NCBI GenBank assembly: GCA_001600355.1 | Contig: BCJU01000002.1 | Location: 1,240,001-1,304,000 of the forward strand | Direction of reading: 5' to 3' | Length of the DNA stretch: 64,000 nucleotides | Source of the DNA: Meira nashicola | Taxonomy: Eukaryota > Basidiomycota > Exobasidiomycetes > Exobasidiales > Brachybasidiaceae | Shown: positions 15,200-27,731 of the stretch, piece after piece | How positions within the stretch are numbered: position 1 is the first letter of the stretch | Layout of the letters: every line of letters starts with the position of its first letter | Made by a program: the position numbers and the translations under genes | Notes under the pieces: generated by a model | The model's database searches: none | Told to the model about the DNA's origin: nothing | The model's input: only the letters and a program-made list of their open reading frames with translations

Positions 15200-18100
15200 T
15201 CAATGCAGAGGTCTGGTTGACATCCTAGGCGTAACTTGATCATCTTCTTCATCATCGCTAGCTTCTTGCACGATAAATTGTGTAGAATCAGTCAAATCTC
15301 CTGAAGGTGATGATTGTCGCATTTGCATCGCATAACCAGAAGCATTATTCGATCTCCCATTATTGCTCATCGCATATCTGCTTGGCCAAATACGAGAAGC
15401 CAAAAGATCTGTCCTCTTCTTTGTCCATAACCATGCGTCACGCAACAATATTTCCAATTCACCTCCAAAGTCTCCCAACGTTTCCATCGAAACACCGGAA
15501 GTAGATCCTACTCGCACTCCAGAAGATGAAGTGTTACGTGACATGCCCAATCCTCCTGGCAAAGGCATGAATGCTGAGGCAGAAACTGTTCGCAAACCAA
15601 CCGATTCCCTTGCTGCTTCATGTGCCAAATATTCAGCACGTTCTTGAGTTGCAATAACTTTAAGTAAATCTTTTACCGTTACTAATCCAGTCAATTTACC
15701 CAAATGGCTTACTAAAATCACTCTTGGACCCATTTTTTTGAACAAATCCATCACAACTTCTAGAGGCATTGTTGGTTGAACTTGTAATGGATTCTGTTCT
15801 ACCCATTTACCCAGCTCAATTTCATCATTATCACCTTCACCGTTTATACCGCCTCCTGCCGTTCCCAGTAATGCGTCATCTCCTCCTTCTAGTCCGTCTT
15901 CATCCTCATTATCTTCATCATCATCATCATCTTCATCTGCCGATAAAAGAGTTTCATTCTCTCTTGGAGCCCTTCGACGTGCTTTGGCTGCCGCTAATTC
16001 TTCTTGATCATCGAACGTGTTCAATGCTGGCGTTGGAGGTGCGTTGGGAATAGTTTCGTTCTGATTTAAGGTGAAATAACACATCGTTTTTGGGCTCAAG
16101 CTATTTCGAGCATGACGAGCTTTACCGATGGCATATCTCAGCTCTGTCTTTCCAATATATCCTAAAAGTATACGATCTTGTGCATTTTGAACGATTGGAA
16201 AACCTTTATAAATTCCTGAAGCTAATCTCTTTTCTACTTCATGTAATTCCATTCCTTCAGCATGCAAGACAACAGCATCTTTCGTCATCACATCGCCCAC
16301 TTTGAGATTAAACACATGATCGTCTTTATCCAAAAATGGATATCCTTGAAATTTAATAGTTTGTTCGGCAATTCCACCTTTTGCGTACCAATCTGCGATT
16401 CCTTTTGTAATCATGACTACCAACATGGTTGGTAAGATGTAAGTCAATGCGCCTGTTAATTCAAACATGATCACAACCACGGCTACAGTGATTCGAGTTA
16501 CACCTGCCAATGCTGCTGCTGCTCCCAAGAAAGCATATGTTCCAGGTGTAATACATGGCACGTCAGGCTGACAAGCAGAAAAGAAAGAAGCTTGAGGATA
16601 AGATGTTTGTAAAGATTTTACCAAAATTCCAATCATTCGTCCAAATGTTGCTCCGATTGCCATTGAAGGAACAAAGATACCTGCAGGTACTTTGCAACCA
16701 TAAGATAAAATCACCAATGCAACACGCAATACTGTTGCTAATAACAAAGAATTCACCATTCTCCATTGTGCTGATGATTGACAAAGGTTGTCATAATCTC
16801 CACCTCCTTCACATTCGCGGAATAAAATTTCGAGTGATTCAGACATATCGATACGTAAAAACATATTCCAATATCCTATCAAAGCAGTGATTGCCGCTAA
16901 AATCACAGCTTCTGATACACCATGACTTGCTAAATTCTCCCTTCGAAACTTTTGAACTTGTAAGTTATATTTGATAACAAAAGCGCCATATAATCCGCCA
17001 AAAATACCAATAATCACATAAAAGAATATTTCGAAATAATGCCAATCACGATCGTAAGATACTTGGAATAAAACCAACTTTCCCGTCCTGAAAGGGTTCA
17101 TAAACGAAAGAGCTACGGTAGCTGCTAAAGCGCATAAGAAACTACGCCACATTGTAGAAGAAGGAAAATTGTATGCCATCTCCTCCAAAGAAAACAGTAC
17201 ACCTCCGATCGGAGAACCAAAAGCTACAGCTACACCGGCAGCACTGGCAGCTGTAAGTAATTCGCGCATCCTAGCTTGACTTCGAGCAAAACTTCTAAAC
17301 CACGTTCCAACGATATTGCCTATACAACATGCAATATGCACAGCAGGACCTTCTTTACCAACGCTCAATCCAGACGAAATTGCTAATGGTAAACTTAAGC
17401 TCTTGATAGCAAAAGTTCCAGTTCCCAAAAATCCATTGATGATAAAACCAGCGAGAATGCACTTGATTTCACTAATTCCGCTCCCTGCAGCATAAGGTGC
17501 AAATACTCGAACTAGATAGGCACATGCTGCCGAAAGAGCGACTGCGAACATTATATAAATAACGAATGAAGGCAATGTCCATGTGCTCCAAGGTATCCAA
17601 TCTTCGCAAATTTCAGTAGCTGAATTAATGGGAACATTTGAAGAAGTATCATTTGCTGCTCTTCTATAAAATTGATCAGCTGCTGATTGAACGAAAGGTA
17701 GGGCACGAGAAGATAATTGAGTGAAAGCTGGAAAGGCGTTGATTTGATCTCGTGCATGAGCTATATTTGGTAATGTTGCTGTGGCCGTTTTTACTGCCGC
17801 TGCTGCCGCTGCTGTTGATACTTTAATAGCTACCGGCGGTAATGCTCCTCCAGGTCCAGTCGTATCCGTCATTTCTCCACAACAAAATTTCTTATTTAAC
17901 CACCAACCGGCAGCACAACGACCTTGTTTTATATCAGAAAACCATTCTGTTGCAATACTAATCACTGCCATATTCACACCTATCAATAGTCCTACCATAA
18001 CTACAACACCACTATCGGTTACCGCTCCTGCTGCTCTGCAAATGAAACGCCAAAACCACCATAATCTTCTGCCCCAAGGATTTTCTGTTGGCCACCATCT

Positions 18101-18583
18101 AGGAGGTCTATCTCCAGGTTCAAAGCGACCTTTTCCCCAAGCGTCCATATGATTACCGAAACCTCCATTAAGATTTCCATTTGCAAGAGGTGCATTAGAA
18201 GATGTTTGTCTATGCGTTCCTTTTCGTGAAGCTCTTGCCCTTTCACGCATACTATCTGTAATCCAATCAACTGTTGAAAAGCTTTCATATCTTCTAATTT
18301 CATCTAATGCTTCTTCGTCCATATCATTGGCCATAGAAGCAGACCTTTGTGTGGTTCCATCATTGTTATTATTATTATTACTGCTGCTGCCGCCGCTACC
18401 TTCAGCTGTTCCGAGTCCTAAATTACTCATTCTTCTTGATCCTCTTCTTCCCGTCGTTTGACCCGAATTTAGGGATGACGGTCCTCCTTCATCGGGCAAA
18501 GCTGTCGAAATGACCATCTCTGGAATTAAAAAACGATTAGGTTGTATGCTGTCAAGGTTCAAATTTATACCGAAATCTGCCAA
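15200..18583 (-). CDS. CLC-family chloride/proton exchanger with two CBS domains
   Basis: A 1127-residue intronless protein. The N-terminal 150 residues are cytosolic and low complexity. The CLC membrane domain spans about 165-730, with signature loops GSGISEIK (about 370), GKEGPAVH with the gating Glu411, and GSPIGGVLFSLEE. Glu518 in WHYFEIFF occupies the position of the internal proton glutamate of CLC antiporters, so exchange rather than a simple channel is predicted. The C-terminal region has CBS1 (about 760-820), an acidic linker (a run of D/E near 880), CBS2 (about 925-980) and a disordered tail. It resembles animal ClC-3/4/5 and yeast Gef1, which act in Golgi and endosomal membranes. 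A poly-Ala/Val loop and an Asn-rich run near residue 70 are low complexity. Confidence 0.95.
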   Translation of the reverse strand: MADFGINLNLDSIQPNRFLIPEMVISTALPDEGGPSSLNSGQTTGRRGSRRMSNLGLGTAEGSGGSSSNNNNNNDGTTQRSASMANDMDEEALDEIRRYESFSTVDWITDSMRERARASRKGTHRQTSSNAPLANGNLNGGFGNHMDAWGKGRFEPGDRPPRWWPTENPWGRRLWWFWRFICRAAGAVTDSGVVVMVGLLIGVNMAVISIATEWFSDIKQGRCAAGWWLNKKFCCGEMTDTTGPGGALPPVAIKVSTAAAAAAVKTATATLPNIAHARDQINAFPAFTQLSSRALPFVQSAADQFYRRAANDTSSNVPINSATEICEDWIPWSTWTLPSFVIYIMFAVALSAACAYLVRVFAPYAAGSGISEIKCILAGFIINGFLGTGTFAIKSLSLPLAISSGLSVGKEGPAVHIACCIGNIVGTWFRSFARSQARMRELLTAASAAGVAVAFGSPIGGVLFSLEEMAYNFPSSTMWRSFLCALAATVALSFMNPFRTGKLVLFQVSYDRDWHYFEIFFYVIIGIFGGLYGAFVIKYNLQVQKFRRENLASHGVSEAVILAAITALIGYWNMFLRIDMSESLEILFRECEGGGDYDNLCQSSAQWRMVNSLLLATVLRVALVILSYGCKVPAGIFVPSMAIGATFGRMIGILVKSLQTSYPQASFFSACQPDVPCITPGTYAFLGAAAALAGVTRITVAVVVIMFELTGALTYILPTMLVVMITKGIADWYAKGGIAEQTIKFQGYPFLDKDDHVFNLKVGDVMTKDAVVLHAEGMELHEVEKRLASGIYKGFPIVQNAQDRILLGYIGKTELRYAIGKARHARNSLSPKTMCYFTLNQNETIPNAPPTPALNTFDDQEELAAAKARRRAPRENETLLSADEDDDDDEDNEDEDGLEGGDDALLGTAGGGINGEGDNDEIELGKWVEQNPLQVQPTMPLEVVMDLFKKMGPRVILVSHLGKLTGLVTVKDLLKVIATQERAEYLAHEAARESVGLRTVSASAFMPLPGGLGMSRNTSSSGVRVGSTSGVSMETLGDFGGELEILLRDAWLWTKKRTDLLASRIWPSRYAMSNNGRSNNASGYAMQMRQSSPSGDLTDSTQFIVQEASDDEEDDQVTPRMSTRPLH

Positions 18584-19007: not shown

Positions 19008-22000
19008 ATGTTGTCTACATTAAGGATTATTCATCCTCCATCATCCGATAATCCAACATGTCTACCAATTTTAATATTGACAGTAGATAATAGAAGATTC
19101 TTGTTCAACGTACCTGAAGGAACAACGAGAATTTTGCTCGAACGTGGTGCAGGAGGAGCACTGAAAAATTTAAAAGGAATCTTTGTACCTCGTTCTGGAG
19201 TTGATGAATGCGGTGGACTTCCAGGAATGCTTATGTCTTTGGCAGATCGATCTTTGACAGAGATGAAATTGTTTGGACCACCTGTTCTATCTCAATTGGT
19301 TTGCACAGCACGGTCATATGCAAGACGGGATGGTTTCAAGTTGAGCATACACGAAAGCAATTTATCTGAAAATGGCTCTTCTTCGTCAAAGGATGGTGAA
19401 ATAATATACAAAGATGCAGATATTGGTGTCCAAGCTATTCCAGTATACCCCAAAGGTTTCACCTTGCCTCATTCGAATGGTGTGTCAGGACCCTCGTCTC
19501 AAGGCTCACTAGATCGACCTTCCAAGAAGCAAAAGAGTGAATCAAGCATGAATCAAAATAATTATGCGCCTACAGCAGAAGTTCGAAATTTTTTGAAGTT
19601 GATGTTCTCATCCAAGCCTTATGTCAACGGCAAAAATAGCGGTGTCGCTGTGAAAGAGCAAGAGACGGATAGTTCAGCGGATGAAGAAGCTGCACAGAGG
19701 GTCAAAATTACTCAAAGTCGATTTCAAAAGCTTTCATCGCCTCCACTACCTTCAGTTGAGCTAAGCGAAGCTCACTCTGGACAAGCACCAGCATTGACAT
19801 ACATCGTAAAAGGTAGCCCAGTCAGAGGACGTTTTGACGCTCAAAAAGCAAGAGAGATTGGCGTACCCGACCCTAGCCTGTATAAAATTATAGCGAGCGG
19901 GAAGGATATTGTAGTGAATAGACCGAAGCAATGGTTTGAATGGGATGAAAAACGAAGAAATGCTTGGTTTCTGCGTCAGAAAGCATCAAAGTCAGCAAAA
20001 GATGGAAAGCATACAAAGGCAAAAAAGCAGGCGACCAAAACAAACGACGATGATCTTGCTAATGTGGAAACGGAAAGCGTAAAGATCTATAGCAAGGACT
20101 TATTGGCACCATCAATACCACCTACAAACTTTGCACAGGTCTATCTACCTTCGATTGATTATTTGGATTCTTTCTTTTCAGCAAGTACGCAAGCGCAATT
20201 TGAAGGATTAAAAGAGCAAATGCATATTATGATCCATGCTGTGCATCCCAATGTCCTAGAGACTGATCAATATCAAGCCTTCGTCAAAAGTTTCCCAAAA
20301 ACACATCATTACATCTCATGCCGCCAGTATGTTCCCGACAAACTTGGATATCCTTCATTCGCAACAAGCATGCTACGCCTTAGCCGAATCGATCAGAATT
20401 TGTTCAAAGTGCCCAATTATTCTTTGACACCCAAACGATCACTCGCAAAAGTAGGACTGGATCTTTCCAACGTACTCCCTATCGACACTGAAACAATAAT
20501 CGGTCTTCAACCGAGAAAGTCACCAAGTTCGGAAATTGCAAACATTAAAGACTTTAACTTTTCTACCGATTCTCCAGAAGCAGAGGCTTTGGCCAGTTTC
20601 TCTTATGAACCAAAGTATGACCTTCAAGCTGCGGCTCTTGAACGTGGACGACAGAGATGGGCAAAATATATCGAGCTGGTTTCACACTTACACGAGGAAG
20701 AGATGCAAGATGTATCACAAGATAGCACATCAAGTCAACTAGACAAAATTGCTCTTACCACACTTGGTACCGGCAGTGCTCTTCCCAGCAAGCACAGAAA
20801 TGTCAGCAGTACTCTCTTGCACCTTCCTGATAAGCAAGGATATATACTCTTAGACGCGGGTGAGGGCACATACGGTCAGCTTTGTCGAAGGTTCGGATCA
20901 GAGGTGGATAATGTTGTGCGTGATATTAAGCTAATCTTCCTCAGTCATACGCACGGAGATCATCATATGGGCACAGCAAAATTATTGGCAGAACGGAAAA
21001 AGCTTTCGGTTGATCGACCATTGTTTGTGTTGAGTAACAACTTTACTCGAGCATATCTGTTGGAAGTCAATGAAATTCAATCACTCGATATCTGTAAGAC
21101 AGAAGAATCAGGAAGCGCTAAACGAGGTGTAATTTTCCTCGAAAGTGAAAATTTTGATTCTTGGTATGGAGTACGACCGGATGCTCTTGTAGAAAATCCC
21201 ACTACGCCAGATCAAGAAGATAAGGCTTATCATACTTTTACAAAGAATGAAGTCCGCAAATATATATCCAGTTCGCTTCGTACCCCAAAAGGTAAGGATG
21301 ACTTTGAAAATCGCTTGAATTTCGTTCTAAAACAATCTATGGAAAGCAAAATTCCACTACGTGATGCTTCAAGGCAACAGATAGATGCTTTAGAGGAAGA
21401 ACTCAGTGACACCAAGGTGTATACTACCGAAGTAGATCATCGAGGAGCAAAATGTTTCGGAATCGTGTTGCGAGGAAAAGGATGGAGTTTGGCATACAGT
21501 GGCGATACGCAACCTTGTGAACGTTTTGTCAAAGCGGGTAAAGATGTCGATATTCTTTTACATGAAGCCACTTTCGAAAATGGAGAAGAAGAAAATGCGG
21601 CAAAAAAGAAACATAGCACGGTGGGACAGGCTGTTGATGTTGCGCGAAAAATGGGAGCAAAGAAATTGTTATTAACCCATTTCAGTCAACGTTATCCCAA
21701 TATACCTAAGATCAGACCGGAAGAAGAAAATATTGAACATTCGGGCGTGGATCCATTGGTTGGCATCAGCTTTGATCTTATGACTGTCAAAGCGAACGAC
21801 ATTGGCAAAACGGAACGCTATAGAGAAGCATTGCAAGTTCTATTTGATGCTGAAGAAGATGATGGAGAAGACGAAAGTGGAGAAGGAGAGAATGGAGAGG
21901 GTGGAGGAGAAGGAAGTGTCAAAGGGAATTCCAAAGGCAAAGGCGCAAAGGAGACACAATCTGTAGAAAAAGGTGAGTGTATTCTATAGCATAGCTAGAA

Positions 22001-22610
22001 GGAGAGAATACAAAATTGATAGATCATCTTGTTTCTTTCAGATAAAAAGGCTGAACAGGCACAAAATGGACAGGCAAATGATGCTCAGCAGGTAGAATCA
22101 TCTACTTCCGAGGACGCTTCCTCAAACCATGCAAGAAGGGGCCATACCGTGCAGAGCAAGTACGTAAAAAATCATGAACATGTTTACGTGGTGATCAATA
22201 CGGTGCCTTTGCATCGTTCTCGCAATGCACCTAGCTCTAGCGCAAACGATGTTGCCCCTTTTAGTAGGTTAACATTTGCTGATTCAATTCAAAGATCGTT
22301 GGATGAAATGCACGGGGTAATGGGAAGTAGCTTCGAACGTGATTTAATCTTATTTCGACATTCTTCCGATTCTACCGTCTTGGCAATTTTTAAAGTTGCT
22401 TCTGATTACGCCCAACTGTTAACCTCTGTCATTTCTGCAGGTGTTCAGATCAAATCAAATGCAGGTACAATTTTCATTACTCGATACGCCGGTTTACTAA
22501 ACAGCTTTGACCTGAACGCCGCTCAAGCAATGATTTTACCAGATCAATCAGCAGGGCAACGATCTTTGCAACCACCTGGACGTGCTTGGTTACAAGCTCA
22601 ATTCTCATAA
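19008..22610 (+). CDS. TRZ1: Long-form tRNase Z fused to an Rpp14/Pop8-like RNase P domain
   Basis: Two exons, 19008-21972 and 22042-22610, joined across a 69-bp intron (GTGAGT...TTTCAG) in phase 1; 1177 residues. Residues 1-985 are a long-form (ELAC2/Trz1) tRNase Z. The inactive N-terminal half has RRFLFNVPEGTTR and GGLPGMLMSLAD. The catalytic half has LPSKHRN (about 595), the SHTHGDHHMG metal motif at about 646, YSGDTQPCE, HEATFENG, KHSTVGQA and LTHFSQRYP. It cuts the 3' trailer from pre-tRNA. An acidic/Gly-rich linker follows, then exon 2. Exon 2 (about 1022-1150) reads as the Rpp14/Pop5/Pop8 fold: VKNHEHVYVVI, SLDEMHGVMG, DLILFRH, STVLAIFKVASDYAQLL and TIFITRYAGLLNSF. These follow the order of the RNase P/MRP subunit family. 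The tRNase Z call is secure; the fused domain is inferred by eye. Without splicing, translation stops at 21989 after GECIL. Confidence 0.88.
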
Positions 22611-22725: not shown

Positions 22726-25700
22726 CTAGTCTGATTCTCCTTGAACCCAAATGTGCCCACTCTGTTTGGCCATATGATGCTCAGGTAATGCATCCCATTC
22801 TTTACTCTCTTCCATATCGATGCCTTGAACCCATCGTTTCCATGCTTCTTCATATCCTCTTTCCAAATGACGTACCCATCTTTTCGTATCAAAAAGCTTG
22901 TTTGAATCACGCGATAAGAACAATTCTTTTCGTAAATCTGATAAATCTCCATGCGATCTGCGTGAATCAGTTCCGGGAGGTGCTTGTGGTCCATTCTTTG
23001 CCAAATCAATACGTGATCGTGGTGGGAGTGGATCTAGATTCTCTTGATTTTGTTCTTCCTTTTTGGATTCGGCTTCTGCTTTCTTCACATTCGCAGGTGC
23101 AGGCGCTTCATTGGCTTTTTGTCCTTGTTGGCCAGTCGAATTGACGGCAGTATGTTGTGCAGCTGATGAACTTTCTGCATTGAAGCTTAATGCATCTGCT
23201 TGTACAACATTTTCTCCTTTTTTGGGTTGATTTGCTTTGAGACTCTTTCCATTTTCATCAATATAAGTGTAAGAAAGACTTTGTGCCAATTGTACAGCTC
23301 GATCTTCATATGCTTGCTCTGAATCAACAATCATTCTATCTCCTTGTCCTGCTGCGGCTACAATACTTGCTGCTACTCTACTAGCCATCTTGTGCTTGTG
23401 TTTAGGCCAAGTTAGTACAGGCGTTGCAGACCATAAAATGTCCGCACTTGTTGTATGTGCACCACATTCTAAAGTGTCCAAAAATAAATCTGCAATCCGA
23501 CCACGATGGATGTGAACACTTTTTGGCGCAACATCGGTAAAGATCACTCTTGCAGCCACTTCATCACCAAAATGTTTTTGCGCATAACGCAATAAATGTG
23601 CTTCTCCAGCTGAAGGAAAACGTAAAAGCCAAATTATACTATTTGGCACACGTTTGAGAATTCGTAGCCATAATTTGAACAATGTAGGCTCAAGCTTGTA
23701 TAATTGATTAAAATCTGCAAAGATCACGTAATCATCTGGCAAAGAAGGCCAAAGTTCTTTACGTGCTTGCCATCTACGCTTTTCTTCTTCTCTCCATGCC
23801 TCCTCATCGTTCATCTGATGAGGTTTGACAATTTCTCCTGAAGCACCACGTCTTTGTTCAGGTTCACGGAAACCTTGACGATGATCGTTAACAAAGTAAC
23901 TATCGGGCAAATAGATGAAATGTTCGGTATACACCCAATCGTTATCTGTAGATTCAGGATCACGATCTCCATCGAAATCTGTCAATCTACGTTGCCTTTG
24001 CGATCCTTGCTTCCTTTCTTTTCTCCAAATGTCGGTACTTGTCATCTCTGGTGGACAAACGATCGGATCTACAACAATCCAATCCGTCCAGCTACTTGCC
24101 ATTCCTCCTGCGAAACCCATAAATTCCAATTGAACCGGACAAGGTCTTGCAGCAAAAATCTCATTTCTGGCACCTTTGGTGTACCCATTCAAGTTCATCA
24201 ACAAATGAATTCCATCATCCAAAATACGTGAAATGATCATTTGATTTGTCCATGCGCTTACGTCCAAAAAGTGTTCGGCTTCTTTTTCGATCTTCTTACG
24301 ATAAGGAGATTGATCAGAAACAGTTGTTGCGTAAAGGAAGATCTCAAATTTGGATCGATCATGAAAGCCAAAAGTGGACTGCATCAGATGCGCTAGCGGA
24401 TGATTATTGAAATCGCTGGATACATATCCCACTTTGATCCTTGGCGATGGAGGTGCAGGCGGCGGATAAACATTGGAAGGCAGCCAAAATTGAGACATTG
24501 TTGTTTGAGATATACGCAAAGCTGTTCGATGAGAAATTAGACGGATATGTCTAGGTGGAATTTTGAGAGTGAATGTGTGGAATGGAAGTACGGTTGGCAC
24601 TGCAGGCGTTCCAAGACATGTTGGCAAAGGTATCCTTCGATACTTTTGTATGTCTTGTGGTTGTGGTATGATGCGTGGTAAGACACGCTCAGATTCTATT
24701 TGATTTCCGTACACATCAACGTACCACTCCCTTTGCGTCCTTCGTATGATGCGTTCGATCAATCTGATCACGAAAGAACCTTCATTTATCTTTTGTTTTT
24801 CTCGATCACCTTCCAAGCCCATGGCAGAGATCATTTGAATTCGATCGATATAAATTTGCTTTTGTTTAGAATTGTTTCGGCCGGTCATTCGTACGATCAA
24901 TTCAGCCCATTCTTCAGGACTGCGATCAGAGCACAAAGAGCCTATACCATACAAGCTTCCTTCGTCTAATTGACGCTCTAATAGCGCCACCACACGTGCC
25001 ATGAATCCTTCTTTGCCTTCATCACTTTGACCGTATACTTCTTCCCAATCACATATGGCAAGCAAAGCATTGACTAAGCCACACAAAGCTTCGGGAAAGT
25101 TTGCGTTTACCTCTACAGCACGTCGGTAATATTGCACGGAATCTTGTGTACGACCTTGATCTTTGATCGCATTGCCCAAATTAGCTAATGCAACGTCAAA
25201 TGTCGGGTTGCAATCGATTGCTTTCTCATACATCTGAACCGCTTCAGTCAGATGATTTAAATCTTTTAGTAAAGAACCAAAATTTGTATATAGATGCGGG
25301 TGTTTGGGATCCAAAGTTAGTCCGTAGGTATAGTATTGAAGAGCGAGAGATTGTCCATTGATACTTTGACGTTCTCCTGCGCCAGAAGCAACGGTAGTGC
25401 TAACTGGTATGGAGGATAAAAGGATACCCAAATTATTTGCAGTCGAAGCAGCAGGACTGACAGTGATTGATAGGTAATACAACGGCAAAAGTAGCGAAGT
25501 TGAAGGTGGAATGCCGTCCAAAGTTAATGCACCATGAGGACCACTGGTAGCGCGAGTGGTAGCATCTTGAATTAATTTCGCAAGGGTAAGCAAAACTGTA
25601 CTCGTCATTGTTTGTGATTGTTGCAAGGTAGATTGAATCGTATCAACACTTTGAACAGCTCGACGACAAGCTTCCACCAGAGCAGGTAAGCTACGTTCTG

Positions 25701-27731
25701 TTTCAGCAAACAGTATACTGGCCAATTGAACAGCACCTTGTGGTAACATCATCAATAAAGGTAATTGCGATCCTCCGCCAAGACGAAGTAGCGTACGAAG
25801 TAGTTTATCGCCTGCTTTGCGCACTAAGCGAAGAATGCCACCACCCGGACACAAAAGATGATATTGACCTGCAGCAGCTTGTTGAATCTGTTGAGAATCT
25901 TGCAGATTCAATCCAATGGCTTGAGCAATGTCCGATAAAGCATGTGTTGCATGAGCGCCGGGCAACGCAATACCCATAGTCAGAACACCAACAACATAGG
26001 AAGAAAGGACAAGATCGCGTACACTGTATGCGCTATTTTCAGAGGTGGACAAGACCACTTCGATGGCTCTCTCGTACTCTCTTGCTGCAGGTACAGCACC
26101 CAGATCGGGCAAAACATATTTGAGATTTCCTTTTGCATAAAACAGATTTTGTAACCTAGGCCCTTGAGCAACCGGTAAATGCATTGGCATATACACAGGA
26201 GAATTTTCAAAAGATGCAATCGCACCGCTGCCTGGTACCTTTCGCAATCGACCTTCATCAGTTGCCTGTTGACGTTTAGACAATACGTTTGATTCGACAT
26301 ATTCGCACAACTTCAATGCTTCGTTGAATCTTGGTAACCCAGTTTCAGGTTTGCGATCTGCAGGCGCTATCCTTTGATCATTATCCGAAGGTAATTGACC
26401 AATTTCCGCAACACGATTGGCAGCAGCATGTTCTTCTTTGTTAGGTGGAATTTGTTGTGGCGAACACAAGACGCCCAAAAGATTCTCATAAGCATCCCAA
26501 TAACCCGGTCGAAGCTTCACAGCTCGCCACCACCATGATTCGGCTTCGTGCCATCGACCCAAAGCGCGCAAGGTAGTGCCGATATTGCTCATGCTTTCGA
26601 CATAATTTCCGTCGATTGACAAAATCTCTTTGTTGTACCACAAACTTGCTGCCAAATCACCACAACTGTAATATGCGCAACTCAAAAGCAACAACGTCGG
26701 CAAATGGCGGGGGTGCAATTTGTGAAGAGTGTGTAATAAAGGCAGTAAGGAAGGATGTAATTCTGTACGCATCTGAATCTGCTCTCCCTCCTTCTTCGTT
26801 TTGTCTACTACTCCTTGTTCACCCTGATCTATTGGAATTTGCTTTCCCCCAGTTGCGTACAATTGATGGGCATATTGCAATAACTGATCGCGAATTTGAG
26901 GAGAATCGACGCTCAAACCGGTTGATGAAGATGCTTGGGCTACAAGGAGCATAGGGTCATTTTGCTGAATCGTATATGAGCTAGCAGAAGAAGATCCCAA
27001 ACCTTCAGCTGTAGAATGACTTGTGAATTGCGGTAAGGCAGCGTTTTGTTGTTGAAGTAGTTGTTGTTGTTGCTGAGTGATGGACACGCTATGGGCTGAA
27101 GATGGCGCAAAGTACGGTTGCGTGAAGCCGTCCGTATGCAATTTTTGATAATATCCGGCAGCCAATGCAGTAAGCTGGGATTGAAAATGACGTGCAAAAT
27201 CAGGCGGAATGAATTGCGTTGTTGATTGTCCATTTCCGCCAAAGCTTTTGCACGCTACCGTTGTGCGGTGTAATTGTTGACGTGCTTGCTCTTGGCGGTC
27301 TGCACCTTCCAATCCGGCCTTTTAAAAAAAGGAAAATGGAGGAAAAGTCAGCAAAAAAAAAACACACCATATTTCAAATCAGGCCAAGACAAACTTACCC
27401 ATGCACGTAGCAAGACTGTAATCTCTTCTTGTTCTTGCTCCGTTAGTGAACGGCTGCTGGAACTGATAATTTCTCCTTTATCGTTATCAGTTCTTCTTTC
27501 TGCATTTTCCTTGCTTTGCATCTCCGTATCGTTATCTTGAAAAGTACTTGCTGTTGTCAAGGCTGCAGTAGCAATAGCAGCAGCTGAAGCAAGAATCTGA
27601 AAGTAGAGTAGAGAGAATGTAAGAAAATTGATTTCTCGTTTTTTTCATAACTTTTCAATAAAACATACCGTATATTCATCTGGAGCCAATCGATAGCTAA
27701 TTGATGGCGGCGAATCGGTTGTAAGACGCAT
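22726..27731 (-). CDS. OGT: UDP-GlcNAc:protein O-GlcNAc transferase (GT41, TPR type)
   Basis: Three exons read from the right: 27731-27669, 27596-27399 and 27318-22726. Introns are GTATGT...TTTCAG and GTAAGT...AAAAG, all phase 0; 1617 residues. TPR repeats lie at about 285-375 (CAYYSCGDLAASLWYNKE; GRWHEAESWWWRAV) and 745-840 (NFGSLLKDLNHLTEAVQMYE; ALANLGNAIKDQGR). The GT41 catalytic region (about 1045-1580) has VGYVSSDFNNHPLAHLMQS with the conserved HPxxH, FMGFAGGM, and FADFNQLYKLEP with the lysine expected to contact UDP. It also has LKRVPNSIIWLLRFP, the FTDVAP and GAHTTSADILWS segments, and ERGYEEAWKRW at the end. It transfers GlcNAc to Ser/Thr of nuclear and cytosolic proteins. A long Gln/Ala/Lys-rich insert splits the C-lobe. 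The start ATG at 27731 follows a pyrimidine-rich leader. The gene is convergent with tRNase Z (115 bp). Confidence 0.92.

What the first reader, a model, noticed from the sequence alone, without database searches (positions are those of the whole stretch)
19008..22610. tRNase Z fused to an Rpp14/Pop8-like RNase P domain: 3' and 5' tRNA processing in one polypeptide
Exon 1 is a complete long-form tRNase Z with all metal-binding motifs. Exon 2, joined in frame by a clean GTGAGT...TTTCAG intron, encodes about 190 residues that follow the Rpp14/Pop5/Pop8 pattern: KNHEHVYVVI, SLDEMHGVMG, DLILFRHSSDSTVLAIFKVA, FITRYAGLLNSF. RNase P makes the tRNA 5' end and tRNase Z the 3' end. A fused subunit would physically couple the two enzymes, or attach tRNase Z to the RNase P/MRP particle. 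I know of no description of such a fusion. The tRNase Z identity is established family knowledge; the second domain is my reading by eye.
Basis: partly seen in the sequence, partly recalled or inferred. Interest (0 to 1): 0.87.

Follow-up and report, generated by a model that had tools for sequence, protein, structure and literature searches.

The report
tRNase Z fused to RNase P subunit
In this smut-relative fungus and in a number of its relatives the enzyme that trims the 3' end of transfer RNAs carries, on a flexible tail, what looks like a core protein subunit of the particle that trims the 5' end, so one chain may tie the two steps together.

Summary
Exon 1 (19008-21972) encodes a complete long-form tRNase Z; a 69-nt phase-1 intron (21973-22041) joins it in frame to exon 2 (22042-22610), which encodes a Pop8/Rpp14 domain, a subunit of RNase P/MRP. 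Single-sequence Pfam hits are weak, but a profile of 18 such domains finds yeast POP8 (E 1.4e-6) and human Rpp14 (5.7e-5) in the PDB, and the predicted fold (pLDDT 85.6) ranks Pop5/Pop8/Rpp14 chains first. Exon 2 has no start codon ahead of the domain. The fusion recurs: 26 of 120 listed tRNase Z relatives carry it (Malassezia, Ustilaginales, Thecaphora, Exobasidium); no listed protein named as Agaricomycotina or Pucciniomycotina does. This points to an old trait of Ustilaginomycotina, not seen in Tilletia, Tilletiopsis and Violaceomyces. Pop1, Pop4, Pop5, Rpp1, Rpr2 and MRP RNA lie elsewhere in the genome; no second Pop8 was found (weak search). Ten paper searches listed no description. Most likely the domain docks with Pop5 and tethers tRNase Z to RNase P/MRP; splicing, docking and coupling are inferred. 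Against: the public Meira protein ends at the intron; no RNA data.

The parts
19008..21972 (+). Exon 1: long-form tRNase Z (residues 1-988 plus the first base of codon 989)
   Evidence: Pfam PF13691 and PF12706, TIGR02651 below cut-off
20946..20966 (+). Motif II HTHGDHH of the catalytic half (residues 647-653)
   Evidence: Motif position; coordinates computed from it
21675..21698 (+). C-terminal tRNase Z motif THFSQRYP (residues 890-897)
   Evidence: Motif position; coordinates computed from it
21855..22145 (+). Acid-rich then polar linker between the two folded parts (about residues 950-1023), interrupted by the intron
   Evidence: Inferred from sequence and from the homologue P0007, whose residues 923-994 are under pLDDT 50; the window protein itself was not folded full length
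21973..22041 (+). 69-nt phase-1 intron GTGAGT...TTTCAG; if retained, the frame ends at 21989 (..KGECIL stop)
   Evidence: predicted from sequence, no RNA data
22042..22610 (+). Exon 2: end of the linker plus the Pop8/Rpp14 domain and stop codon
   Evidence: upstream stop in this frame at 22020, first in-frame ATG at 22308
22146..22604 (+). Pop8/Rpp14-like domain (residues 1024-1176 by profile)

Best explanation
One gene makes a 1177-residue protein: a long-form tRNase Z with its catalytic motifs, a flexible linker of roughly 75 residues, and a Pop8/Rpp14 domain. The Pop8 domain pairs with the separately encoded Pop5 and is built into RNase P, and probably also RNase MRP. This tethers the 3' endonuclease to the 5' one, so a pre-tRNA whose leader has been cut can be handed over to tRNase Z on the same particle. 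Shown by sequence: the joinable reading frame, both domain identities, the predicted fold, the recurrence in Ustilaginomycotina, and the lack of a start codon ahead of the domain in exon 2. Inferred: splicing, nuclear location, assembly into RNase P/MRP, the tether and the hand-over.
Confidence: 0.75

Rival explanations
1. The gene is a fusion on paper but the two parts work apart: intron retention gives tRNase Z alone (993 aa) while spliced product, or a protease cut in the linker, supplies Pop8; the fusion is a way of co-expressing them.
For: Retention gives a stop codon that ends 17 nt into the intron. The Meira public model ends there; several unspliced ORFs do too, but a caller without introns must give that. 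The linker of P0007 is predicted disordered.
Against: Proteins of the source lgn, which elsewhere shows the two exons as two ORFs, hold both domains in one protein (P0007, P0043, P0044, P0087), so separation by splicing is not general. Any Pop8 made from exon 2 here must first be joined to an upstream exon.
Confidence: 0.15
2. The domain has left RNase P and acts only as an RNA-binding or substrate-gripping arm of tRNase Z.
Against: No other Pop8 was found (weak search), while 6 of the 8 other RNase P/MRP parts searched for were found (found; not found). The core of the domain is kept in all three lineages compared, though the Ustilaginales rows lack the last helix.
Confidence: 0.07
3. Two neighbouring genes misjoined: a tRNase Z gene and a separate Pop8 gene with its own first exon.
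For: In several contigs they appear as two ORFs (P0135 with P0003, P0137 with P0006, P0123 with P0093, P0124 with P0069, paired by identical longest-contig length).
Against: Only 69 nt separate them, no in-frame ATG precedes the domain in exon 2, nine out-of-frame ATGs lie between 22066 and 22303, and relatives have one annotated or one predicted protein.
Confidence: 0.03

Closest known systems
Fungal long-form tRNase Z (S. cerevisiae and S. pombe Trz1 family; survey PMC2942849)
   Same: N-terminal pseudo-domain and C-terminal catalytic half with its motifs; the genome also has what looks like a short form, as the survey reports for Basidiomycota
   Different: C-terminal Pop8/Rpp14 domain. The survey lists Malassezia globosa tRNase ZL (1109 aa) and notes variable C-terminal extensions; I saw its abstract, section 5 and found passages, and its one occurrence of 'RNase P' is in the references
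Yeast Pop8 / human Rpp14, subunits of RNase P and RNase MRP
   Same: Profile match over most of the length and predicted fold
   Different: Those are separate chains of 133 and 124 aa in the PDB; here the domain is the tail of tRNase Z
Human mitochondrial RNase Z complex ELAC2/SDR5C1/TRMT10C (PMC11649783, abstract and outline seen)
   Same: RNase Z acts in a complex with SDR5C1 and TRMT10C, which are also subunits of mitochondrial RNase P (abstract start of PMC10602865 in the listing); the 5'-to-3' order is explained structurally
   Different: Protein-only, mitochondrial, non-covalent; here a covalent link to a subunit of the RNA-based enzyme
Human RPP14-HTD2 bicistronic transcript (passage in PMC8509007)
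   Same: The Rpp14 gene is transcriptionally joined to another enzyme
   Different: Two proteins, and the partner is not a tRNA enzyme

Membership tests
Long-form tRNase Z (tRNase ZL / ELAC2) | tRNase Z N-terminal domain PF13691 plus metallo-beta-lactamase catalytic half | tested here: met
   PF13691 36.8 bits (cut-off 27), PF12706 64.9 bits (cut-off 27); TIGR02651 at 8.3e-61 but 205.7 bits against a cut-off of 292.95
Long-form tRNase Z (tRNase ZL / ELAC2) | Catalytic metal-binding motifs intact | tested here: met
   HTHGDHH, SGDT, HEAT and THFS motifs in the window protein; their histidine and aspartate columns are invariant in 23 aligned proteins
Long-form tRNase Z (tRNase ZL / ELAC2) | Cleaves pre-tRNA 3' trailers | not testable with these tools
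   No activity data
Pop8/Rpp14 (RNase P/MRP subunit) | Sequence match to Pop8/Rpp14 | tested here: met
   Single sequence below Pfam cut-offs; profile of 18 finds POP8 and Rpp14 in the PDB; 16 of 18 members match PF20976 at E<=0.1; over that family's cut-off on their own: P0024, P0034, P0087
Pop8/Rpp14 (RNase P/MRP subunit) | Pop5/Rpp14-type alpha-beta fold | tested here: met
   [not shown]
Pop8/Rpp14 (RNase P/MRP subunit) | Heterodimer with Pop5 inside RNase P and MRP | not testable with these tools
   No complex prediction or binding data; Pop5 is encoded at G000:C1:5395353
Pop8/Rpp14 (RNase P/MRP subunit) | Being the only Pop8 of the genome | tested here: inconclusive
   Protein search finds only itself; the PF20976 search found nothing, not even this domain, and its control rang nowhere, so it has no power
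Pop5 (considered) | Is the domain the Pop5 subunit itself | tested here: not met
   Pop5 is a separate 197-aa ORF with PF01900 at 92.1 bits; the domain profile prefers POP8/Rpp14 over archaeal Pop5. By fold alone the three tie

The most novel reading that the evidence does not exclude
In Ustilaginomycotina tRNase Z has become a built-in subunit of nuclear RNase P, and probably of RNase MRP. If the only Pop8 is its tail, each particle carries a 3' endonuclease, and one machine makes both ends of nuclear tRNAs and may also cut rRNA precursors next to MRP sites.
Probability: 0.5. Interest if true: 0.9.

Novelty: new variant of a known kind. Interest (0 to 1): 0.82.

Why it matters
I found no paper in the searches made that settles whether nuclear RNase P and tRNase Z work in a physically linked complex. 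A covalent fusion kept across much of a subphylum is a natural case in which the link is fixed. It makes the question directly testable: pull down Pop5 or MRP RNA and look for tRNase Z; cut the linker and measure 3' processing. It also predicts a fixed relation between the amounts of RNase P, MRP and tRNase Z. As a by-product the fused domains give one profile that finds both yeast Pop8 and human Rpp14, which one review passage does not treat as homologues (PMC8509007).

Tried and rejected
Pop5 as the identity of the domain: rejected, since Pop5 is a separate gene. Separate-gene reading: disfavoured. Finding a standalone basidiomycete Pop8: the profile search gave 16 proteins at E<=10, from sources lgn, ena or jgi, none named as a free Pop8. 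Four of the 16 share their longest-contig length with a tRNase Z ORF (script with 20 of the 120 contig lengths typed in; by eye the rest of the table gives no further match), which suggests second exons of the same gene; the other twelve could not be paired. A region search with the domain of P0007 listed only P0007, so reach by exact words is short and says nothing about absence. RNase P RNA: not found, 15 of 663 candidates scored. Rpp20/Pop7 and PRORP: not found; the PRORP control rang nowhere and the Rpp20 control rang in one genome below cut-off, so these say little. PF20976 in the own genome: no power. The ribonuclease Z model also gave two weak matches on C1 (24.9 and 22.6 bits) that I did not examine. 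In the first tail scan 100 of 122 sequences were scored, 22 lacking the TH[FYL][SG] motif; one search then scored all 138 sequences whole and of those 22 only P0001 (the window's own exon 2) was hit. P0025 had a weak hit (1e-4) and none; its tail looks frameshifted; it is not counted. An earlier count gave 28 tail hits under 1e-11; the correct reading is 27 (the window included) plus P0025.

Full report
What is there. The window lies in a eukaryotic genome of 17.9 Mb in 20 contigs. Its nearest named relative by this protein is Meira miltonrushii (78% identity over 70% of the part searched), so it is probably a smut-relative fungus of the Exobasidiales kind; that placement rests on one protein. 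On the + strand, ORF 19008-21989 encodes a long tRNase Z and ORF 22029-22610 follows at once. Removing a 69-nt intron, GTGAGT...TTTCAG at 21973-22041, joins them in frame (phase 1) into 1177 residues. The intron is predicted from sequence only.

Can exon 2 stand alone? In its frame there is a stop at 22020, within the intron, and the first ATG is at 22308, inside the domain; nine ATGs from 22066 to 22303 are out of frame with frames of 4 to 15 codons. A complete free Pop8 would need another upstream exon. If the intron is retained, the result is tRNase Z alone (993 aa).

Identity of the two parts. Exon 1 matches PF13691 and PF12706 over cut-off and ribonuclease Z models below their cut-offs, with the catalytic motifs present. 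Exon 2 alone is weak: PF01900 E 0.0016 and PF20976 E 0.095, both below cut-off, and a single-sequence PDB search lists nothing. The case rests on relatives. Eighteen C-terminal domains were aligned (A1). Their profile finds yeast POP8 (E 1.4e-6) and human Rpp14 (5.7e-5), then an archaeal Pop5 at 0.6 and an unrelated chain at 1.6. Taken singly, 16 of 18 match PF20976 at E<=0.1, best 5.5e-11, and 5 of 18 match PF01900. Of the full-length fused proteins scanned with Pfam, three are over the PF20976 cut-off on their own (P0024 and P0034; P0087), while P0007, P0010 and P0050 list neither family. Clade-left-out profiles guard against circularity (E for 138 sequences). Malassezia rows alone find the spliced window protein at 1.5e-8 and all nine Ustilaginales/Thecaphora proteins of the fused set. 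Malassezia plus Ustilaginales rows find it at 8.2e-10. The window-side rows alone (window, P0007, P0008, P0010) find all 13 Malassezia-side proteins (weakest 1.9e-7) and 5 of the 9 Ustilaginales/Thecaphora ones. The Ustilaginales-only profile did not list the window protein. None of the four lists holds a tRNase Z outside the fused set at E<=10.

Distribution. One search scored 7992 candidates, found 484 and listed 120 (one of them, P0002, is the window's own exon-1 ORF). Of these 120, 26 carry the domain; 17 of the 26 are in A1 and 9 are not. Named ones include Malassezia furfur, cuniculi, vespertilionis, psittaci and yamatoensis, Moesziomyces, Sporisorium, Ustilago, Kalmanozyma, Melanopsichium, Thecaphora frezii and Exobasidium rhododendri (names, where 6 of 120 rows carry PF20976 precomputed). 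Pseudozyma flocculosa (P0117) ends in what looks like the start of the domain (by eye; not hit by the profile). No listed protein named as Agaricomycotina or Pucciniomycotina was hit; many rows are unnamed. In a quick tree of 53 of the 120, built without the domain, 40 rows that include all the named Ustilaginomycotina chosen form one branch with support 100. Fused proteins occur in its Exobasidium/Meira, Ustilaginales and Malassezia parts; not seen in three Tilletia, Tilletiopsis and Violaceomyces. With the six unknown rows left out the tree needs at least 3 changes of the trait. For that tree I labelled P0117 as fused by eye, and P0002, P0003, P0006, P0069 and P0093 by the downstream ORF. 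The simplest reading is one gain near the base of the subphylum with later losses or missed exons. A missed exon is a real possibility: the Meira public protein ends within two residues of where exon 1 ends here (P0004).

One polypeptide? In the source lgn the two exons appear as two ORFs on contigs of one length (P0003 with P0135, P0006 with P0137, P0069 with P0124, P0093 with P0123), so that source probably does not splice. Proteins of the same source that hold both domains (P0007, P0043, P0044, P0087) should therefore have them in one unbroken frame.

The rest of the machinery in this genome: Pop5 (C1:5395353; 197-aa ORF), Pop4/Rpp29 (C1:5856138), Rpp1/Rpp30 (C2:2728255), Pop1 (C3:213929), Rpr2/Rpp21 (C1:3661690) and RNase MRP RNA (C1:2884988-2885440, 88.9 bits, gathering score 50). 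RNase P RNA was not found, with 15 of 663 candidates scored; Rpp20 was not found. The exon 2 protein finds only itself, but that search reaches only close relatives. A second tRNase Z, short by its length (541 aa), lies on C3.

Novelty. Ten paper searches listed no paper that, by title, start of abstract or the passages read, describes a tRNase Z-Pop8/Rpp14 fusion. They cover open-licence PubMed Central only, and four lists were cut. The survey PMC2942849 (abstract, section 5 and passages) includes M. globosa tRNase ZL at 1109 aa and mentions no RNase P domain in the parts seen; P0061 has the same length and carries the domain, which suggests but does not prove that it is the same protein. Domain tables already list PF20976 on Malassezia RNase Z proteins, so the architecture is visible in databases. 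The PRORP review PMC10941002 (passages) mentions possible complexes of PRORP with RNase Z, not a fusion with it.

Verdict. The gene structure is very likely; physical coupling is likely but unproven.

Noticed in passing
[not shown]
   Followed up: partly
window 22726-27312, minus strand: TPR plus glycosyltransferase family 41 (O-GlcNAc-transferase-like) ORF of 1528 aa, convergent with the fusion gene with 115 bases between the two ORFs.
   Followed up: no
G000:C1:2884988-2885440: RNase MRP RNA, 88.9 bits against a gathering score of 50.
   Followed up: no
alignment A1 (18 domains): A single profile finds both yeast Pop8 and human Rpp14 in the PDB, sequence support for their homology; a passage of PMC8509007 says a homologue of Rpp14 is absent in yeast.
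   Followed up: partly
P0004, Meira miltonrushii public protein: The public gene model ends within two residues of the exon 1 end here and lacks the Pop8 domain; possibly a gene-model error.
   Followed up: no
window 15200-18583, minus strand: CLC chloride channel with CBS domain, ordinary.
   Followed up: no
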